Source: Chrysophaeum taylorii
Lineage: Eukaryota; Sar; Pelagophyceae; Pelagomonadales; Pelagomonadaceae
Length of the DNA stretch: 64,000 nucleotides
Direction: 5' to 3'
Assembly: GCA_029834535.1 (NCBI GenBank)
Contig: JAQMWT010000634.1
Coordinates: forward strand, 38,314-102,313
The position numbers and the translations under genes are program-made. Below are positions 47,806-55,856 of this stretch, piece after piece (positions within the stretch are counted from its first letter, which is position 1; each line of letters opens with the position of its first letter). A model generated the notes under the pieces. It saw only the letters and a program-made list of their open reading frames with translations. It was not told the DNA's origin and did no database searches.

Positions 47806-48377
47806 TGTTATCCTACGTACCTACGGGACGCGCTAATCCATGATGATGAGCGTGAGCACAAATCAGAGGACTACAGTGTTAGGGTCCGAGGATGGATGAC
47901 GTCATTCACAGTATCCCCTAACACTCCCCCCAAACCTCCGCCTAAATCTAACAATATATGCCGCGTTTGGCTAAATTGACGTTCAGCCTACAATGCTGTA
48001 AAATCCCAAATGTAGGTTTCTCGGACAATTATTAGGGTCGGATAAGAAGACGAGACTAGCCCGCGCCGCAACGACGGGTCCTACAACGCGTGGGCTTTTT
48101 CCTTTTTTTGCGTGAGGGGACGAAAGGATGCCGACTTCACTATGGGGACTAGTTCCATCGCGACGATCTCGCGGCGTGGCGGCACATACTGCTTGAGTAC
48201 AAATGAACATAGCTCAGCGATCCGTTGAGTATGTCTTAGTACAAACTGAAACATAGTTAACGGCTCGTACGAACTTTCTTATCCGACCCTGACAGTGTAT
48301 GGGGAAGAAGAAGGGTAAGGGAGAGACCGCCGTCTCAACGGACGGGTTAGGGGTAAGGGACTGCAGATTTCTCCGCA
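47806..48377 (-). repeat. Remnant LTR of the copia-M family, with insertion
   Basis: On the minus strand it follows the copia-M LTR: TGCGGAGAAATCTGCAG at 48377, the GTCCGTTGAG and CTTACCCTTCTTCTTCC segments (48298-48350), and TAGTCCTCTGATTTGTGC (47844-47872). The purine tract CTTGAGGGGG precedes it, so it is a 3' LTR with a little interior. It is interrupted by 47880-48290, flanked by ACAGTGT on both sides. Confidence 0.75.
48034..48290 (-). mobile_element. 257-bp inverted-repeat element, copy 2
   Basis: Near-identical to copy 1 in reverse orientation. Next to it, 47882-48033 holds another stretch starting TAGGGTCCGAGGATGG; the duplicated ACAGTGT lies outside both parts, so the inserted unit here seems to be the longer 47882-48290 segment. 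Confidence 0.85.
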
Positions 48378-48563: not shown

Positions 48564-48900
48564 TGTGGCGTATGGAGAATTTTAGGGGCTACCTGGCGTG
48601 CCTTCGAATCCTGGCTCGCCGATCGCGTCCGTGCCCTTGGTGGGATCACTGGACGAGGATGGCCGTTCTCCCGCCACGCGACCACAAACAACTTCCGTGC
48701 CTGGTCCTCTCAACTTGAGGATCGGCTGTTGCTTTATGATCAAGGATAATCGAAAATCAGAAATCAGGGTGACATGCGTCACGGAAAAGGAAGATGATGT
48801 CATAGAAAACTCTGACATCATCGGAACGGAGTAGGGTGCCCCTGATAAGGGGGGGCCCTAGAAGAGGGGTAAGCCTTAGGAGGCGGGAGTTGCCGCCACA
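48564..48900 (-). repeat. 3' LTR of gypsy-M (337 bp)
   Basis: It is bounded by TGTGGCGTA on the left and TTGCCGCCACA on the right of the plus strand. It holds the uninterrupted GGAACGGAGTAGGGTGCCCC, which is the empty target of inverted-repeat copy 3. The interior side has ACCAGGGGAG as a short purine tract on the minus strand. Confidence 0.87.
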
Positions 48901-48940
48901 GGACTCCCCTGGTAAGAATTCGAGCTGCCCCAGCGAGGTG

Positions 48941-49651
48941 CTAGCGCGAGGAGCGCGGCTTCGCCTTACGAGCATCTCGTGAACGAATCTTCTGGTAAAC
49001 GCGGGTGATGATCGGTTCAGGAACTCGACCACTGCGTAAAGTAAACTTGGGGACCAACACGTCAATCTCGTGTGGAGCGAAATCCGTGACACAAGGAGTT
49101 GTGTTGGAGGAAATTCGGGACTTGTCGGTGAAACTTCGACCTTCAACGTCCTTGAATTCGGGCTTGAGCTTGCGGTGCGAAAGGTGAGAGGTCGGCTTGA
49201 AATAAGCGACATCATCGTTCGGACCCAAATCGGAATAGAAATGTAGAGCAACACGATCATTTTGGTAATCGTAAGGCTCGTAAACTTCAGCAACATAAAC
49301 CTTCTTGCGCCAATCGGAGCGCTTCCGGTCAGGAATCCGGAAAACAACAAACTTACCGTGCTGATAATCATCACGGAAGGTTTCTTCGGGTTTGCGGATG
49401 GTTTGATCAACAATCGGAGGTACCATCACAGGCGTGATCTGACTTACATGAACACGCCGCTCTTCGGGCGGCGAGTCGAGAGACTCAATCCTATAGGTGA
49501 CCGGGGAGAGGCGTTCCTTGATAATAAACGGCCCTCGCCATTCCGGTCGAACTTTGTTCTGAAGGAAAGGGATGTAGAGCAAAACGTGCGATCCTTCCTT
49601 GTATTCAACATCAACATGATCAGCATTGTAAGCCAATCGCTGTTTCTTCAA
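48941..49651 (-). CDS. gypsy-M integrase C-terminus (GPY/F and putative chromatin-reader barrel)
   Basis: A 236-codon frame. It begins with KKQRLAYNADHVDVEYKEGS and then RPEWRGPFIIKERLSPVTYR, which is the GPY/F module at the end of gypsy integrases. Next, KFVVFRIPDRKRSDWRKKVY and VAEVYEPYDYQNDRVALHFY form five or six beta-strand-like segments resembling a Tudor, BAH or chromo-barrel fold rather than a classical chromodomain. Such tails guide integration into chromatin in related elements. The last 60 residues are basic. The frame is intact but cut off from the core by the inverted duplication. Confidence 0.65.
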   Translation of the reverse strand: MKKQRLAYNADHVDVEYKEGSHVLLYIPFLQNKVRPEWRGPFIIKERLSPVTYRIESLDSPPEERRVHVSQITPVMVPPIVDQTIRKPEETFRDDYQHGKFVVFRIPDRKRSDWRKKVYVAEVYEPYDYQNDRVALHFYSDLGPNDDVAYFKPTSHLSHRKLKPEFKDVEGRSFTDKSRISSNTTPCVTDFAPHEIDVLVPKFTLRSGRVPEPIITRVYQKIRSRDARKAKPRSSR

Positions 49652-50117
49652 AGCTTATCACGAGCCTCGCGGACGATCTTTGTATAATATTTCAATCGTT
49701 CGCGAGTCTCGGCAACTGCATCAGAGCGAGTCTTCGGCAATAATCGTGTATCAAAATCCATGAGCGTGTAGTCAGTCGGCAGCATCGGCTGACGGTTCAG
49801 GCGCAGCATAAAGTTGCGAAGACTCGCTCTGATGCAGTCGCCGAGACTCGCGAACGATTGAAATATTATACAAAGATCGTCCGCGAGGCTCGTGATAAAG
49901 CTTTGAAGAAACAGCGATTGGCTTACAATGCTGATCATGTTGATGTTTAATACAAGGAAGGATCGCACGTTTTGCTCTACATCCCTTTCCTTCAGAACAA
50001 ACTTCGACCGGAATGGCGAGGGCCGTTTATTAGTCTTCGGCAATAATCGTGTATCAAAATCCATGAGCGTGTAGTCAGTCGGCAGCATCGGCTGACGGTT
50101 CAGGCGCAGCATAAAGG
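49520..50117. repeat. Inverted duplication within gypsy-M integrase
   Basis: Bases 49520-49735 reappear reverse-complemented at about 49815-50030, and 49730-49815 reappear directly at about 50033-50117. The result is a palindrome-like fold-back with an 80-base centre. Copies are nearly identical, so the event is recent or is an assembly or template-switch artefact. Confidence 0.8.
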
Positions 50118-51220
50118 GAGAAATCTGCGTGCCTGTAATAAACTTGCGGTTGTAGCAAAACGCAATATAATGAGCAAAGTCAGGCCAATCCGTGATGTTC
50201 CGGCCTTGAAGGCAAGCACGGAGGAAGGCCTTGATAAATCGGTTGACACGCTCAGCCGGGTTCGACTGGGCATGATAGGGAATCGTAGTTTGGTATCGTG
50301 TGTTAAAGAGATGGCAAAACCCGCGCATCAACTTGTTCACGAACTCTTTACCGTTGTCGGTACGAATCATCTGGGGCAAGTAGCCCTTGAGGAGAATGTT
50401 AATGACAAAAGACTCGAGGACAGACTCAGCAGTCTTATCGTTCAAAACATCCAGAATCAAGAAATGCGAGAGAGAACGGATCAAAAAATACTAGAAGATA
50501 CGTCTCGGGACCAGCGCTGGGCAAGGGTCCAAATAAATCCATGCAAAGAACAGCACCATCACCATCGTAGACGGGCTGCTGCAAGAGTCCAGCTCGTTTC
50601 GGCTCCGGCGTACGAGCTTTCTGGCAAACTAAGCATTCAGCAATGAAGACTCCAACTTCGTTCGACATGTGAGGCCACCAAAATCGTTCTTGGATAGCCT
50701 GGACGGTACTGTGACGTCCCATATGACCACCGTTAACCGGAGTGTCATGGTAGAGTCGAATAATGCGCTTGCGCAACGTAGCAGGTGCAACAATCATCGG
50801 GTGCAAATCAGCAGAAATGCGGTAAAGAACATCTTTAACGACTTCGAATCGTTCGTTCGCTCGGGAACGTCGCGGCGTCTGACCTTGGGCCATTCGGTAG
50901 CGAATATCCTCGCAAGTAGCATCAGATTCTTGCTCACGTGCGATCTCAGCGAGCGTCATATTATCGGGTATCTTATCGATATAATCTTTGTAAGCGGCTG
51001 CGTCCTTGAAGATCTGTGGCTCATCGCGCGCACGGTTCTTCCGACGTTGTCTCGTAGCGTGAGACGTAGCCAATTTCATCGGATCCTTTTCAGGATCTTC
51101 CTCGTCTTCCGGCAGTTCGGTCGTAATAAACGACATTATGAAGTGGCAGCCGGAGGCGGGAACTCCTCGGTCATCAACAGGTCGGGGAAGCTCTTGGAAC
51201 ACCAAATAAGCGTGGTTCAA
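49648..51220 (-). pseudogene. gypsy-M integrase zinc finger and catalytic core
   Basis: Bases 51220-50435 contain the H2C2 finger (GGHMGRHSTVQ...ECLVCQKART) and the first catalytic Asp in LCMDLFGPLP. After a frame change near 50480, the frame ending at 49648 gives RTDNGKEFVN with the second Asp and NPAERVNRFIKAF with the Glu, so the DDE triad is present. The frame then runs into the inverted duplication. Confidence 0.82.
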
Positions 51221-51255
51221 AGGTTCTCCAAACTCGTCAGTCTCGATGACATGAT

Positions 51256-51690
51256 CTATCGGATTGCGGGAGAGACAGTCAGGATACTCATTCCCGGTGA
51301 CTTTCCCGGCTTGTAACCAAGTTCAGGGTCAAAATTGGCGAGGCGCATCGCCCAACGAGCAAGCTGCCCAGACGAGTGCGTCGCCTTACGTAAAAACGTC
51401 AAATTTCGGTGATCGGTCTCCAAAACAGTCCGGTGCCCTTCGATGTAGGCTCGAAAGTGCTCTAGAGAAAGTATAACTGCCAGCAGCTCTAGCCGACGGG
51501 GCTCATAATTGCGCATCTCCTTCGGCACAGCTCGGCTCCAATATTCAATCACTCGTTCTTCTCGAGTCACTCTTCCGGCATCGTCCTTGACTTCGACAAT
51601 CTGGAAGAGATATGCTCCAAGTCCATCCTTGGAAGCATCGGATCGGATCTGAAAAGGCAGATCATAATCGGGGTGGTAGACTCCACGGAA
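51256..51690 (-). pseudogene. gypsy-M RNase H
   Basis: Reading from about 51690 gives RSDASKDGLGAYLFQ (first catalytic Asp), RRLELLAVILSLEHFR (catalytic Glu) and LETDHRNLTFL (Asp), the normal gypsy RNase H set. It is joined to RT by a one-base frame change at about 51690 (VDSVE to VYHPDYDL). Confidence 0.82.
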
Positions 51691-53639
51691 TCAACCAAAG
51701 CTTCAATAATCGTATCCCAAGCTTTCTGACACTCGGGCGTCCACTCGAACTTTACACCTTCGAGGCATAATCGTCTCAGCGGTTCCACGATCTTCGAGTA
51801 GCCCTTCACATATCGCCGGCAGTAATTACTCATGCCGATGAAAGAGCGTATCTGGGTCTTCGGGGAAGTATTCGGTAAAGTACCTGGAATCGGCATCTTC
51901 TGCAGTGCTTCCAGCGTCTTCGGATTCGGCTTCAAGCCTTCTGGGGTAGAAATGTGTCCCAGAAATTCTATATCATCCTTGAGAAGGTGGAACTTCGCGG
52001 TTCGACCGCTGTACCCTCTCTGTGCCAAATGACACATCACTTCGATCAAAACTTGTAAATGTCGATGAAGATCGTCGGATCCCATCATAATATCGTCAAC
52101 AAACGCAACCAAGTCTTGATACATCCATTTCGAAAGGTCGCTCGCCATTTGCTTGCAGAAAAGAGCTCCGGCCGTCTTCACACCTAGAGGTAATCGCAAG
52201 AAACTATGAGCGCCAAGTGGGCTAACCATCGTGACAGCGTCTTGCGCTGCCGGATCCAGACGAAGGTTGTGGTATCCCCATCTAATATCAATGCATGTCC
52301 GCCATCGTCTCATGGCGAGAAAAGCTAAAGCATCATCTTGTCGAATGTTCGGCCAACTGTCATTGACCAATTGATCGTTGAGCTGACGTAAGTCAACTGC
52401 AGCACGGAACGCGTTTGACGTTCCAATCTCAGCTCCTTTCTTCGGAAGCATCAACACAGGAAAGCCCCAAGGTGAGTTGGCCGGACGAATGACTCCATCC
52501 CGGCACCACTCGCTGATCTGCTTGCGGAGACAATCGAGCTTCGCAGGCGTCAATCGGTAGGGCGTCATCTTTATCGGTCGCGGATTCGCGTCTTTGAATC
52601 GTAGAGACACAGGAGGCGAGTCCACAGGTCTCATAATCGGGTCGAAAAAGGCCCAAGAATATTGCACACAGTGACGGAGCATCAGTTTCGCCTCGTCATC
52701 TAAGTGCGGATTGTCAGGAATTCCCAGCTCCTGCACAACCTTGTCAACTTCTTCCTTCGTATGAATTTTAACTTTCATTGCTTCGTTATCCTTGACATGC
52801 TCGGGAGTTTGCGGCAGCGGTGCACCCTCAGCATCGCGCGGCGCATCTTTCCATGGCACATCGAACTTTTTCTCGTATTTTAGTTTCACTTCCGGGTGGC
52901 TTTTGTTGATCCTCTCGCCTTTGACACGAACACTCGGCTCGCTCTTAATCTTCGGTTCCCGATTTTGCTCAGGATCTGGCGGAACGTCAAAATTTGGTTG
53001 TCGGGGGGGCCCAGCAGAAGAAGCACGAGACGTCCCCGGCTCATCTGTTGCAGGCGGAATCAACGGTACCTCTGGAGGTTTCCATTTGGTGCGATCTTGG
53101 AGATCATCAGTCGACACCCATCTTACGACACGTGTGCGCGTGTTTAACAGCGGAACTTGTACGTGACGAAGGGTGGTTTCATCAATTTGTAAATAATAAT
53201 CAAACGGTCGGTCTGCAGGACTCAGCGCTGACGGCAAAGCTTCGCCGCTCAAGTGAAAATCCTTGGTCACAGAGTTGTGCAGATCGAGCACTAATAAGGC
53301 CATCGTGTCAGGTGGCACGACGGACGCCAAGTGTTTCAACGAGGTCGTCCTGGAGAAGCCGGCCCAATCAAAATCAAGGGGCATCGTCAGCAACTCCGAA
53401 GTCATTTTCAGATTCAGAGATCTGCAATCGGAACGGTGCGGTCCTACGCGAAGCGGGACACGCGTAACGGTGTAAGCTGCGTCTGTCGCGGCTCGTGATG
53501 ATCCTAAATTGTTCATCTGAAGTAAATGTCGTTCGTCGGCGTAGCCAAGTGCTGCGGCGAACTCTTGCTGCATATTCTTCAAAAGTTTTTGGAACTGCGC
53601 GCAAATGGAGCGGATGGCTGGAAACCAACAATCGCACAC
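51567..53639 (-). CDS. pol: gypsy-M Pol: methyltransferase C-terminus, linker and reverse transcriptase
   Basis: A 690-codon open frame. The first roughly 50 residues (FQKLLKNMQQEFAAALGYAD, then NNLGSSRAATDAA) look like the last methyltransferase motifs rather than Gag. A roughly 250-residue linker with Pro/Lys/Glu-rich repeats follows (IKSEPSVRVKGERINKSHPE); no aspartic protease is recognisable. Reverse transcriptase runs from SPWGFPVLMLPKK through AAVDLRQLND, FLRLPLGVKTAGALF and the catalytic AFVDDIMMG to GHISTPEGL and FIGMSNYCRRY. All RT motifs are intact in this copy. Confidence 0.85.
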   Translation of the reverse strand: MCDCWFPAIRSICAQFQKLLKNMQQEFAAALGYADERHLLQMNNLGSSRAATDAAYTVTRVPLRVGPHRSDCRSLNLKMTSELLTMPLDFDWAGFSRTTSLKHLASVVPPDTMALLVLDLHNSVTKDFHLSGEALPSALSPADRPFDYYLQIDETTLRHVQVPLLNTRTRVVRWVSTDDLQDRTKWKPPEVPLIPPATDEPGTSRASSAGPPRQPNFDVPPDPEQNREPKIKSEPSVRVKGERINKSHPEVKLKYEKKFDVPWKDAPRDAEGAPLPQTPEHVKDNEAMKVKIHTKEEVDKVVQELGIPDNPHLDDEAKLMLRHCVQYSWAFFDPIMRPVDSPPVSLRFKDANPRPIKMTPYRLTPAKLDCLRKQISEWCRDGVIRPANSPWGFPVLMLPKKGAEIGTSNAFRAAVDLRQLNDQLVNDSWPNIRQDDALAFLAMRRWRTCIDIRWGYHNLRLDPAAQDAVTMVSPLGAHSFLRLPLGVKTAGALFCKQMASDLSKWMYQDLVAFVDDIMMGSDDLHRHLQVLIEVMCHLAQRGYSGRTAKFHLLKDDIEFLGHISTPEGLKPNPKTLEALQKMPIPGTLPNTSPKTQIRSFIGMSNYCRRYVKGYSKIVEPLRRLCLEGVKFEWTPECQKAWDTIIEALVDSVESTTPIMICLFRSDPMLPRMDLEHISSRLSKSRTMPEE

Positions 53640-54210
53640 GACAGCTCATCAAACTGGGAGTTATGTCGTAAAAATTGACGACGTACACGTAAGGGTGCAA
53701 ACGTGCGACGTAAGAAATAATCGAGGCCTCCTGCTCTATCAACCACATGAAGAAACCAGCCATCTTGCATAATTTCATCGTCCAGTGGGTAGCGGTGACT
53801 CCTTTCCCAACATCTCTGGAGGTCAAGTTGCACAGAGCGGAGTGTACGCAGGGTGGCGACGCGACACACATCGACGACGACCATTCCGCGTAGGGTAAAT
53901 AAGATTCGATCAACCGTAAGGTTGTAACATAGCGACCACACAGTGTGTGCTGCACCACAGGAATATTCGGAAAGTTCTTGTGGTGGATCTGGTTGGCGGT
54001 GTCCGACGCATCGAGTGCTAGCACGACTCGAAACGACGTCCCACACGTTTCGTTGGCTCGTTGGAGACCTAAAGTACTGCCTCCGGCTCCACTGAACAGC
54101 ATCACCACCTTGCGATAAGTGATTGGAAGCCATTGAACCTTTTCATATCGGCGGCGGATCTCCGCTTCGGGCTGCCGGTTGTCTCGCCAGCGGCGCCCTC
54201 GGCAGTTCAT
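53440..54210 (-). CDS. gypsy-M C5-cytosine DNA methyltransferase domain
   Basis: The frame starts at the ATG at 54210 and is open to 53374. Motifs: I, VVMLFSGAGGSTLGL (35-49); II, VVLALDASD (Asp 67); IV, CVASPPC with the catalytic Cys at 121; VI, FFMWLIEQ (Glu 159 equivalent to ENV); VIII, SCRVRLL (RxR at 191-193, Gln replaced by Ser). After about residue 200 the homology continues in the frame of the 53639 ORF, so one frame change separates the two halves. The catalytic motifs look better preserved than in copia-M. The family is the C5-MTase fold; which DNMT class donated it needs phylogeny. It begins about 150 bases inside the 5' LTR, in the place of Gag. Confidence 0.8.
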
Positions 54211-54357
54211 CGCCGTAGTAGTTCAGCTCTTCTTCCTCATTATCATAATCAGTATCATTGTCATCGTTCCCTCGCTCGTCTCATACTGACGGCTTGGCGG
54301 AACGTCAAAATTTGGTTGTCGGGGGGGGGCAGCAGAAGAAGCATATCCTCCACCACC

Positions 54358-54959
54358 TGTGGCGTAAGGAGAATTTTAGGGGCTACCTGGCGTGCCTTCG
54401 AATCCTGGCTCGCCGCTCGCGTCCATGCCCTTGGTGGGGTCACTGGACGAGGATGGCCGTTCTCCTGCCACACGACCACAAACAACTTCCGTGCCTGGTC
54501 CTCACAACTTGAGGACCGGCTGTTGCTTTATGATCAAGGATATATCGAAAATCAGAAATCAGGGTGACGCATGTCACGGAAAAGGAAGATGATGTCATAG
54601 AGAAAACTGACATCATCACAACGGAGTTAGGGTCGGATAAGAAAACGAGACTAGCCCGCGCCGCAACGACGGGTCCTACAACGCGTGGGCTTTTTCCTTT
54701 TTTTGCGTGAGGGGACGAAAGGATGCCGACTTCACTATGGGGACTAGTTCCATCGCGACGATCTCGCGGCGTGGCGGCACATACTGCTTGAGTACAAATG
54801 AACATAGCTCAGCGATCCGTTGAGTATGTCTTAGTACAAACTGAAACATAGTTAACGGCTCGTACGAACTTTCTTATCCGACCCGTCGGAGTAGGTGCCC
54901 CTGATAAGGGGGGGGGCTAGAAGAGGGGTAAGCCGCAGGAGGCTGGTGTTGCCGCCACA
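54358..54959 (-). repeat. 5' LTR of gypsy-M, with inserted element
   Basis: It matches 48564-48900 except for insertion of inverted-repeat copy 3 at 54629-54885, flanked by CGGAGT on both sides. Just inside the LTR (54295-54345) a segment of about 50 bases duplicates 52978-53030 of the pol linker. Confidence 0.87.
54629..54885 (-). mobile_element. 257-bp inverted-repeat element, copy 3
   Basis: Same terminal repeats and orientation as copy 2. Comparison with the 3' LTR gives a 6-base duplication CGGAGT. The right terminal repeat ends CCGACCCG with one base changed. Confidence 0.88.
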
Positions 54960-55432: not shown

Positions 55433-55516
55433 GGGTTAGGGGTTTTCTTAGCAGTCGACATTTAAAGACAAACAGCCCCCCTCTTAGCAGTCGACATTTA
55501 ACGACAAACAAGTGCA

Positions 55517-55856
55517 GGCCAGTAAGTTCACCTAGTCCCAATCTCTAACCCCAGTAAGTTCACCTGGTCCCAGTAAGTTCACCTGGTCAGTAAGTTCACC
55601 TAGTCCAAATCTCTAACCCCAGTAAGTTCGGCGTAAACCCACTCGTGCTCACACCACTCCTTCGAGCTCGTCGCTGTCGCCTCCGCCAATCTAAGCTGCT
55701 TCGATCCGCACACGCCGCTAACCTTTGAGTTTACTCTAAAACCCCCAGTAAGCTCACCTGGTCCCAGTAAGTTCACCTGGTCACTATATTCACCTAGTCC
55801 CAATCTCAAACCCCAGTAAGTTCACCTGGTCCCAGTAAGTTCACCTACAGTGCGCG
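55517..55856. repeat. Clustered near-palindromic 17-19-mers
   Basis: About ten copies of CCAGTAAGTTCACCTGG(TC) or close variants, in two clusters (55517-55630 and 55745-55856) with AATCTCTAACCCC spacers recurring between them. The unit is almost self-complementary. A roughly 110-base unrelated segment separates the clusters. It is not a CRISPR: there are no unique equal-length spacers, and the host is eukaryotic. Confidence 0.8.

What the first reader, a model, noticed from the sequence alone, without database searches (positions are those of the whole stretch)
53440..54210. Second, better preserved cytosine methyltransferase in a gypsy retrotransposon, directly after the 5' LTR
Seen: FSGAGGSTLGL, ASPPC, WLIEQ and SCRVR in one frame about 150 bases inside the LTR, followed by gypsy RT, RNase H and integrase. 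Known: these are C5-MTase motifs I, IV, VI and VIII. The catalytic Cys and the AdoMet loop look intact. Inference: the element may encode an active methyltransferase as the first module of its polyprotein.
Basis: partly seen in the sequence, partly recalled or inferred. Interest (0 to 1): 0.92.

Follow-up and report, generated by a model that had tools for sequence, protein, structure and literature searches.

The report
Gypsy retrotransposon with built-in methyltransferase
A jumping gene in an unnamed eukaryote carries its own divergent DNA-methylating enzyme, present in many copies and kept by selection, although the copy in this window is a broken one.

Summary
The motifs are real, on the minus strand (54168 to about 53586), in a Ty3/Gypsy LTR element at 48564-54959. 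This copy is broken: about 4.4 kb upstream of the MTase is missing and the MTase frame changes midway. In a full-length natural copy (C5, 10.3 kb, one 3,063-codon frame) the MTase is not the first module; over 1,000 residues precede it and RT, RNase H and integrase follow. The genome (70.8 Mb) holds at least 138 matches. Between two subfamilies dN/dS is 0.06 and 75% of changes are at third codon positions; in 37 copies Cys is kept in 37, RxR in 37, motif VI Glu in 34. A blind profile finds the domain in 4 of 83 related Gypsy proteins, three with it whole. PF00145 mostly misses it. A Copia family in the same genome carries another C5-MTase. Copies show little or no methyl-C decay. Precedent: KnitGypsy-Dnmt3 (PMC5890265); this looks like a separate lineage. 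Activity and substrate are inferred; methylation of the element's own cDNA is my best guess.

The parts
54358..54959 (-). 5' LTR (TGTGGCG...CGCCACA), interrupted by a MITE-like insert at 54627-54884
   Evidence: matches the 3' LTR at 93.1% over 277 bases and the C5 copy's 5' LTR region at 92.4% over 288; ends read by eye
54627..54884 (.). 258-base insert with inverted ends (GGGTCGGATAAGAAA), MITE-like, nested in the 5' LTR; second copy at 48032-48289
   Evidence: (D1)
53586..54168 (-). C5-MTase, first part: motifs I, IV, VI (IEQ) and VIII (SCRVR), in frame
   Evidence: 95.6% identical to the MTase of L024
53139..53588 (-). C5-MTase, second part (TxT, motif X-like HLASVVPP) and linker, in another frame than the first part
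   Evidence: 94% identity, frame -3
51687..52910 (-). Gypsy reverse transcriptase region
   Evidence: RVT_1 E 1.1e-12; 99.8% identical to L024
51256..51690 (-). RNase H
   Evidence: RT_RNaseH E 2.2e-27
50435..51322 (-). integrase zinc-binding region
   Evidence: Integrase_H2C2 E 9.4e-19
48944..50526 (-). integrase core and C-terminal part, with a local inverted duplication (49522-50032)
   Evidence: rve E 4.1e-6, 27.4 bits, below its cut-off of 32.6; frames; inverted repeats I1 and I2
48564..48900 (-). 3' LTR, 337 bases

Best explanation
This is a decayed copy of a multi-copy Ty3/Gypsy family whose polyprotein carries a divergent C5 cytosine methyltransferase between a long N-terminal part (gag and protease by position; only a protease-like stretch was seen, by eye) and its reverse transcriptase. 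Shown: the domain, its position, its copy number (lower bound), its conservation within the genome and in four related proteins. Inferred: it is an active enzyme, packed with RT, that methylates cytosines of the element's newly made cDNA before integration, a transient mark that helps the cDNA pass as host DNA or escape nucleases.
For: 138 matches among 138 scored of 1065 candidates in the own genome, 119 of 138 without a stop in the aligned stretch by my count of the table. In the natural C5 copy it shares one open frame with RT, RNase H and integrase. dN/dS of the MTase N half 0.060, like RT 0.062 and lower than the linker 0.195; 75% of substitutions at third positions, and the two other frames hold 6-11 stops in the 7 divergent copies. 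Of 40 copies given, 37 had enough coverage (L008, L009 and L056 dropped out): SPPC in 37, RVR in 37, IEQE in 34, FSGAGG in 31. A profile of own-genome rows only finds P0007 (8e-49), P0006 (1e-46), P0003 (3e-20) and P0004 (2e-8) and no other of the 83 relatives; P0003, P0006 and P0007 keep the Cys, Glu-Gln, SxRxR and TxT at 22-32% identity. No C-to-T excess at CG, CHG or CHH in 12 copies, which fits a transient mark better than lasting methylation of the insertions. Precedent: SymbioDIRS Dnmt3 domains methylate CG de novo in yeast (PMC5890265, section 10 read).
Against: No activity data. Motif X lacks the usual GN (ASVVPP) and motif VI reads EQ, not EN; P0003 lacks the GxGG of motif I. In the published test KnitGypsy gave no methylation in yeast, called inconclusive there. 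The missing deamination footprint also fits an inactive enzyme; in the smaller set (27 copies, 1.3 kb) CpG transitions were slightly higher (3.1 against 2.4 per kb; 18 and 30 events). The pairs behind dN/dS 0.06 amount to about one independent comparison (7 against 30 copies); near pairs give 0.10. Copies were picked by protein likeness, which favours conserved ones. AlphaFold models were poor (pLDDT 31 and 50).
Confidence: 0.5

Rival explanations
1. The domain is a catalytically dead C5-MTase fold kept as a nucleic-acid-binding or structural part of the polyprotein (a chaperone or cDNA binder).
For: Motif X GN is lost, motif VI is EQ, P0003 has lost GxGG. No clear mutation footprint of methyl-C.
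Against: The residues that catalyse (Cys, Glu, RxR) are among the 32 columns invariant in A4, whose members are as little as 22-32% alike, and are kept in 34-37 of 37 genomic copies; a binding-only role would not need the Cys.
Confidence: 0.25
2. It is an RNA m5C methyltransferase (DNMT2-like in substrate) that acts on the genomic RNA or the primer tRNA.
For: DNMT2 or tRNA-methyltransferase chains are 2 of 3 PDB hits with A1 (E 0.09-0.10; the third, GGA1, is unrelated) and 4 of 5 with A4 (E 0.19-0.94); PMC5890265 raises RNA as a substrate for SymbioLINE.
Against: Those hits are weak and cover only the first third of the domain; the best A4 hit is a cytosine-specific methyltransferase (3g7u). 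I saw no DNMT2-type CFT motif (motif recalled, by eye).
Confidence: 0.18
3. One-off capture or junk passenger in a single copy.
For: The window copy itself is truncated and frame-shifted.
Against: At least 138 matches in the genome, dN/dS 0.06, same domain in other elements.
Confidence: 0.01

Closest known systems
KnitGypsy-Dnmt3 of Klebsormidium nitens (PMC5890265; section 9 read)
   Same: LTR Gypsy element with a cytosine MTase in the Pol reading frame, purifying selection (Ka/Ks < 0.2 there)
   Different: There the MTase is Dnmt3-related and the terminal repeats are arranged as in DIRS elements; here two ordinary LTRs, no DNMT3 chain among PDB hits (no tree made), motif VI EQ, and over 1,000 residues before the MTase. 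The order of domains in KnitGypsy is in a figure I could not see.
SymbioDIRS-Dnmt3 and SymbioLINE-Dnmt of Symbiodinium (PMC5890265)
   Same: retrotransposon-borne C5-MTases in many copies, intronless
   Different: DIRS and LINE elements (tyrosine recombinase or endonuclease), not Gypsy; activity on CG shown there for SymbioDIRS only
P0006 and P0007 (no organism named), P0003 (MMETSP transcript), P0004 (MMETSP1165, taxid 284809, Chrysocystis)
   Same: same Gypsy pol (48-55% over the RT-RNase H query) with the same MTase upstream (P0004: only its C-terminal part)
   Different: MTase of P0003, P0006 and P0007 only 22-32% identical; SPSC or TPDC instead of SPPC; not named as MTases by the source or by Pfam
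Copia family with a C5-MTase in the same genome (L044, L049, L149)
   Same: LTR element with a C5-MTase upstream of the integrase-RT part, under purifying selection (dN/dS 0.14)
   Different: Ty1/Copia pol (RVT_2); motifs TLPC and ENV; PF00145 above cut-off; motif I without GxGG

Membership tests
C5 cytosine methyltransferase (PF00145) | score over the curated cut-off (22 bits) | tested here: inconclusive
   window 20.2, L024 18.6, L031 20.0 below; L026 23.9 above; P0006 and P0007 13 bits, P0003 and P0004 not listed
C5 cytosine methyltransferase (PF00145) | motif I FxGxGG, motif IV PC, motif VI E, motif VIII RxR (motif names recalled) | tested here: met
   37 copies: FSGAGG 31, SPPC 37, IEQE 34, RVR 37; they fall on those of phage C5-MTases in one global alignment, while two other alignments misplace motif VI
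C5 cytosine methyltransferase (PF00145) | motif X GN and motif VI ENV | tested here: not met
   ASVVPP and IEQE in A1; P0004 has CNMVPP
C5 cytosine methyltransferase (PF00145) | methyl transfer to cytosine C5 | not testable with these tools
   needs an enzyme assay
Ty3/Gypsy LTR retrotransposon | two LTRs flanking the element | tested here: met
   C5 copy 341-base LTRs at 98.2%; window LTRs at 93.1% over 277
Ty3/Gypsy LTR retrotransposon | order RT, RNase H, integrase | tested here: met
   L024 1606-1770, 1840-1977, 2161-2330
Ty3/Gypsy LTR retrotransposon | target-site duplication | tested here: not met
   no matching flanks by eye for the window or the C5 copy, the only two looked at
KnitGypsy-Dnmt3 | Dnmt3 affinity of the MTase | tested here: inconclusive
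   no DNMT3 chain at E <= 1 among PDB hits; no tree with Dnmt3 was made
KnitGypsy-Dnmt3 | DIRS-like arrangement of repeats | tested here: not met
   ordinary LTR pair against the Fig. 4 legend

The most novel reading that the evidence does not exclude
An old, unrecognised clade of C5-MTases (motif VI EQ) has travelled with one Gypsy pol lineage through several hosts, below the Pfam cut-off and so easily missed by PF00145 surveys; and in the same genome Copia elements carry a second, different C5-MTase. Two LTR superfamilies would then have converged on methylating their own cDNA under one host pressure.
Probability: 0.45. Interest if true: 0.78.

Novelty: new variant of a known kind. Interest (0 to 1): 0.62.

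Why it matters
Why a retrotransposon should carry the enzyme its hosts use to silence it is an open question. A lineage that has kept the enzyme over deep divergence, in a genome where Copia elements have one too, gives natural replicates: sequence comparison and a simple enzyme assay can now ask whether cDNA, RNA or inserted DNA is the target.

Tried and rejected
Structure: the window fragment alone gave pLDDT 31; with 16 viral-contig MTases pLDDT 50. Neither was used for a fold search. The alignments misplace motif VI; the model was made from that.

Homologues of the MTase by itself: none at E <= 1e-3 among 1918 candidates and none at E <= 1 among 7997. The relatives came only through the RT-RNase H query. 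All 83 were then scanned with a profile of own-genome rows: 4 hold the domain or its end, 79 do not at E <= 1. Of the 75 that an RT blast aligned, 31 have at least 400 residues before RT, so for the rest absence says little.

MTase-free sister elements: 54 of 127 scored RT places had no scored MTase nearby, but the MTase list was itself capped at 138 scored. 3 of the 54 were read and all 3 hold MTase pieces: L150 one match over residues 867-1433 at 73%, L151 from 1225 on only, L152 with the first part inverted. The other 51 are unread, so MTase-free members are not excluded.

An overlapping gene as cause of the constraint: rejected, since the two other frames hold 6-11 stops in the 7 divergent copies.

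Host name: not found. 18S searches did not complete; pattern one search found nothing. An algal (ochrophyte) host is only a guess from P0004, Chrysocystis, Pelagophyceae.

Relatives of A4 in viral contigs, of P0006 and of the L033 gene in GTDB genomes: none. One search failed through a wrong blastn setting of mine and was rerun.

Full report
What is in the window. PF00145 matches residues 38-94 with E 4.3e-4 and 20.2 bits, under the curated 22. RVT_1, RT_RNaseH, Integrase_H2C2 and a weak rve follow downstream, the Gypsy order. The LTR runs TGTGGCG...CGCCACA: 5' copy 54358-54959, with a 258-base MITE-like insert (54627-54884; second copy at 48032-48289), 3' copy 48564-48900. LTR-LTR identity is 93.1% over 277 bases, so the insertion is not recent. 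No target-site duplication was seen by eye.

The window copy is broken. Its DNA is colinear with a natural copy (L024) up to 54170, and nothing of the N-terminal 1,000 residues of that copy is found in the window at E 1e-3. In the C5 copy about 4.6 kb lie between the start of that colinear part and the 5' LTR; in the window 0.2 kb do, so about 4.4 kb are missing (from the coordinates). The MTase continues after about 53586 in another frame. Of 39 copies compared with L024, only the window's own has a frame-changing indel at that site, and two have one a residue away. The integrase end holds a local inverted duplication.

The family. The window lies in G000 (70.8 Mb, 697 contigs, unnamed). Of 1065 candidates 138 were scored, and all 138 listed match the MTase frame; the count is a lower bound. 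In the C5 copy the frame is 3,063 codons long from stop to stop. A 2,672-residue piece of it places the MTase at 1036-1336 by the family profile, RT at 1606-1770, RNase H at 1840-1977, integrase at 2161-2330. The copy spans about 10.3 kb between LTRs that are 98.2% identical. A stretch upstream of the MTase looks like a retropepsin to my eye (LLGGRDIRVLGAIVDF); Pfam reported neither it nor a gag. Of 40 copies, 18 have the whole domain in one frame without stop by tblastn (one of these, L008, only with 23 gap columns).

Selection. NG86 dN/dS for pairs with dS 0.25-1.5, of 40 copies given: MTase N half 0.060 (37 copies, 142 pairs), MTase C part 0.098 (36 copies, 42 pairs), linker 0.195 (27 copies, 110 pairs), RT 0.062 (30 copies, 57 pairs); for near pairs (dS 0.02-0.12) 0.10, 0.17, 0.35 and 0.13. 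The far pairs mostly compare two subfamilies (7 and 30 copies; members of the small one are 95-99% alike), so this is about one independent comparison. Substitutions fall 17, 8 and 75% on codon positions 1, 2, 3, and other frames are not kept open in the divergent copies. Copies were chosen by protein likeness, a bias towards conserved ones; RT, not used in the choice, gives the same value.

Is it a C5-MTase? In 37 copies SPPC is kept in 37, RVR in 37, IEQE in 34, FSGAGG in 31. PDB profile hits at E <= 1 are cytosine-5 methyltransferases in 5 of 5 cases with A4 (best 3g7u, E 0.0066) and 2 of 3 with A1. NCBIfam dcm matches 9 of 9 members weakly (best E 8.6e-4). Profile-profile against 32 viral-contig C5-MTases: 75.5, shuffles at most 24.1, covering motifs I to VI. 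Those references were collected by likeness to motifs I-III, so only the part from residue 78 is independent; it scores 20.0, and 2 of 100 shuffles exceed it. One global alignment puts Cys, Glu and RxR on those of the phage enzymes; two others misplace motif VI. Structure prediction failed.

Relatives. An RT-RNase H query found 83 proteins. A profile made only from own-genome rows finds P0007 (E 8e-49), P0006 (1e-46), P0003 (3e-20) and P0004 (2e-8) among them and nothing else at E <= 1. P0006, P0007 and P0003 (2,018-2,086 residues) carry the domain whole before RT; P0004, from Chrysocystis, has its C-terminal part. MTase identity to L024 is 32, 31 and 22%, and 32 columns are invariant in A4, among them the Cys, Glu-Gln, SxRxR and TxT. 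P0003 is nearer by RT (55%) but farthest by MTase, so the two trees may not agree. None of the four has PF00145 above cut-off.

A second MTase element. PF00145 over the own genome gave 57 matches from 123 scored of 474 candidates: one 360-residue gene that looks DNMT2-like (L033, same contig as the window), one long gene with an MTase and a RING-like stretch, Dnmt5-like by my reading (L034), and others. Of the next 18 loci (L035-L052), 17 cover over 80% of the MTase of L049; the remaining 37 places were not read. L044 and L049 have the MTase in a long frame; by coordinates the 1,952-codon frame of C96 continues into rve and RVT_2, so it is Copia. A search with its MTase gave 129 matches, some of them pieces of one copy, and dN/dS is 0.14 (17 copies, 121 pairs with dS 0.1-1.5, median dS 0.66).

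Does it mark the genome? Private transitions per kb in 12 natural copies: CG 3.30, CHG 2.70, CHH 3.17, A/T 3.53. In 27 copies over 1.3 kb: CpG 3.1, other C 2.4, A/T 2.4, on 18, 30 and 40 events. CpG observed/expected is 1.31 in the element frame and 1.22 in the window. So there is little or no sign of lasting methyl-C decay in the insertions.

Reading. Position next to RT, conservation of the catalytic residues and the missing footprint together favour a short-lived action on cDNA. That last step is inference. De Mendoza et al. (PMC5890265; abstract, first of three parts of the results, sections 9-11 and passages seen) proposed the same for SymbioDIRS and showed CG activity there; their test of KnitGypsy was inconclusive. 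PMC6338049, PMC9998398, PMC12344493 and PMC12477816 were seen as passages only; PMC12344493 mentions Dnmt3 members in Copia and DIRS elements. Six searches, seen as listings, showed no report of this lineage; the library lacks preprints and most subscription journals.

Noticed in passing
L044, L049, L149 (own genome, C582 and C96): A Copia LTR family in the same genome also carries a C5-MTase upstream of its integrase-RT part: 129 matches (some are pieces of one copy), dN/dS 0.14.
   Followed up: partly
L033 (C634:8824-9801), 28.5 kb before the window on the same contig: A 360-residue open C5-MTase gene that looks DNMT2-like (SPPCQPHTRQ, CFT by eye).
   Followed up: no
L034 (C621:16962-17498): A long open frame with a C5-MTase and a RING-like cysteine stretch by eye, possibly Dnmt5.
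   Followed up: no
window 54627-54884 and 48032-48289: Two almost identical copies (99.6-100%) of a 258-base element with inverted ends, one nested in the 5' LTR.
   Followed up: partly
window 55446-55647 and L024 1420-1609: Repeats of the type CAGTAAGTTCACCTGGTC lie outside the LTRs of both the window copy and the C5 copy; perhaps a preferred insertion environment.
   Followed up: no
window 49522-50032: A nested inverted duplication inside the integrase end of the element.
   Followed up: no
natural copies, residues 1418 and 1464 of P0001: Frame-changing length differences recur at these two sites in 11 and 10 of 39 copies, splitting the MTase part from RT; chance slippage or a used frameshift is open.
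   Followed up: partly
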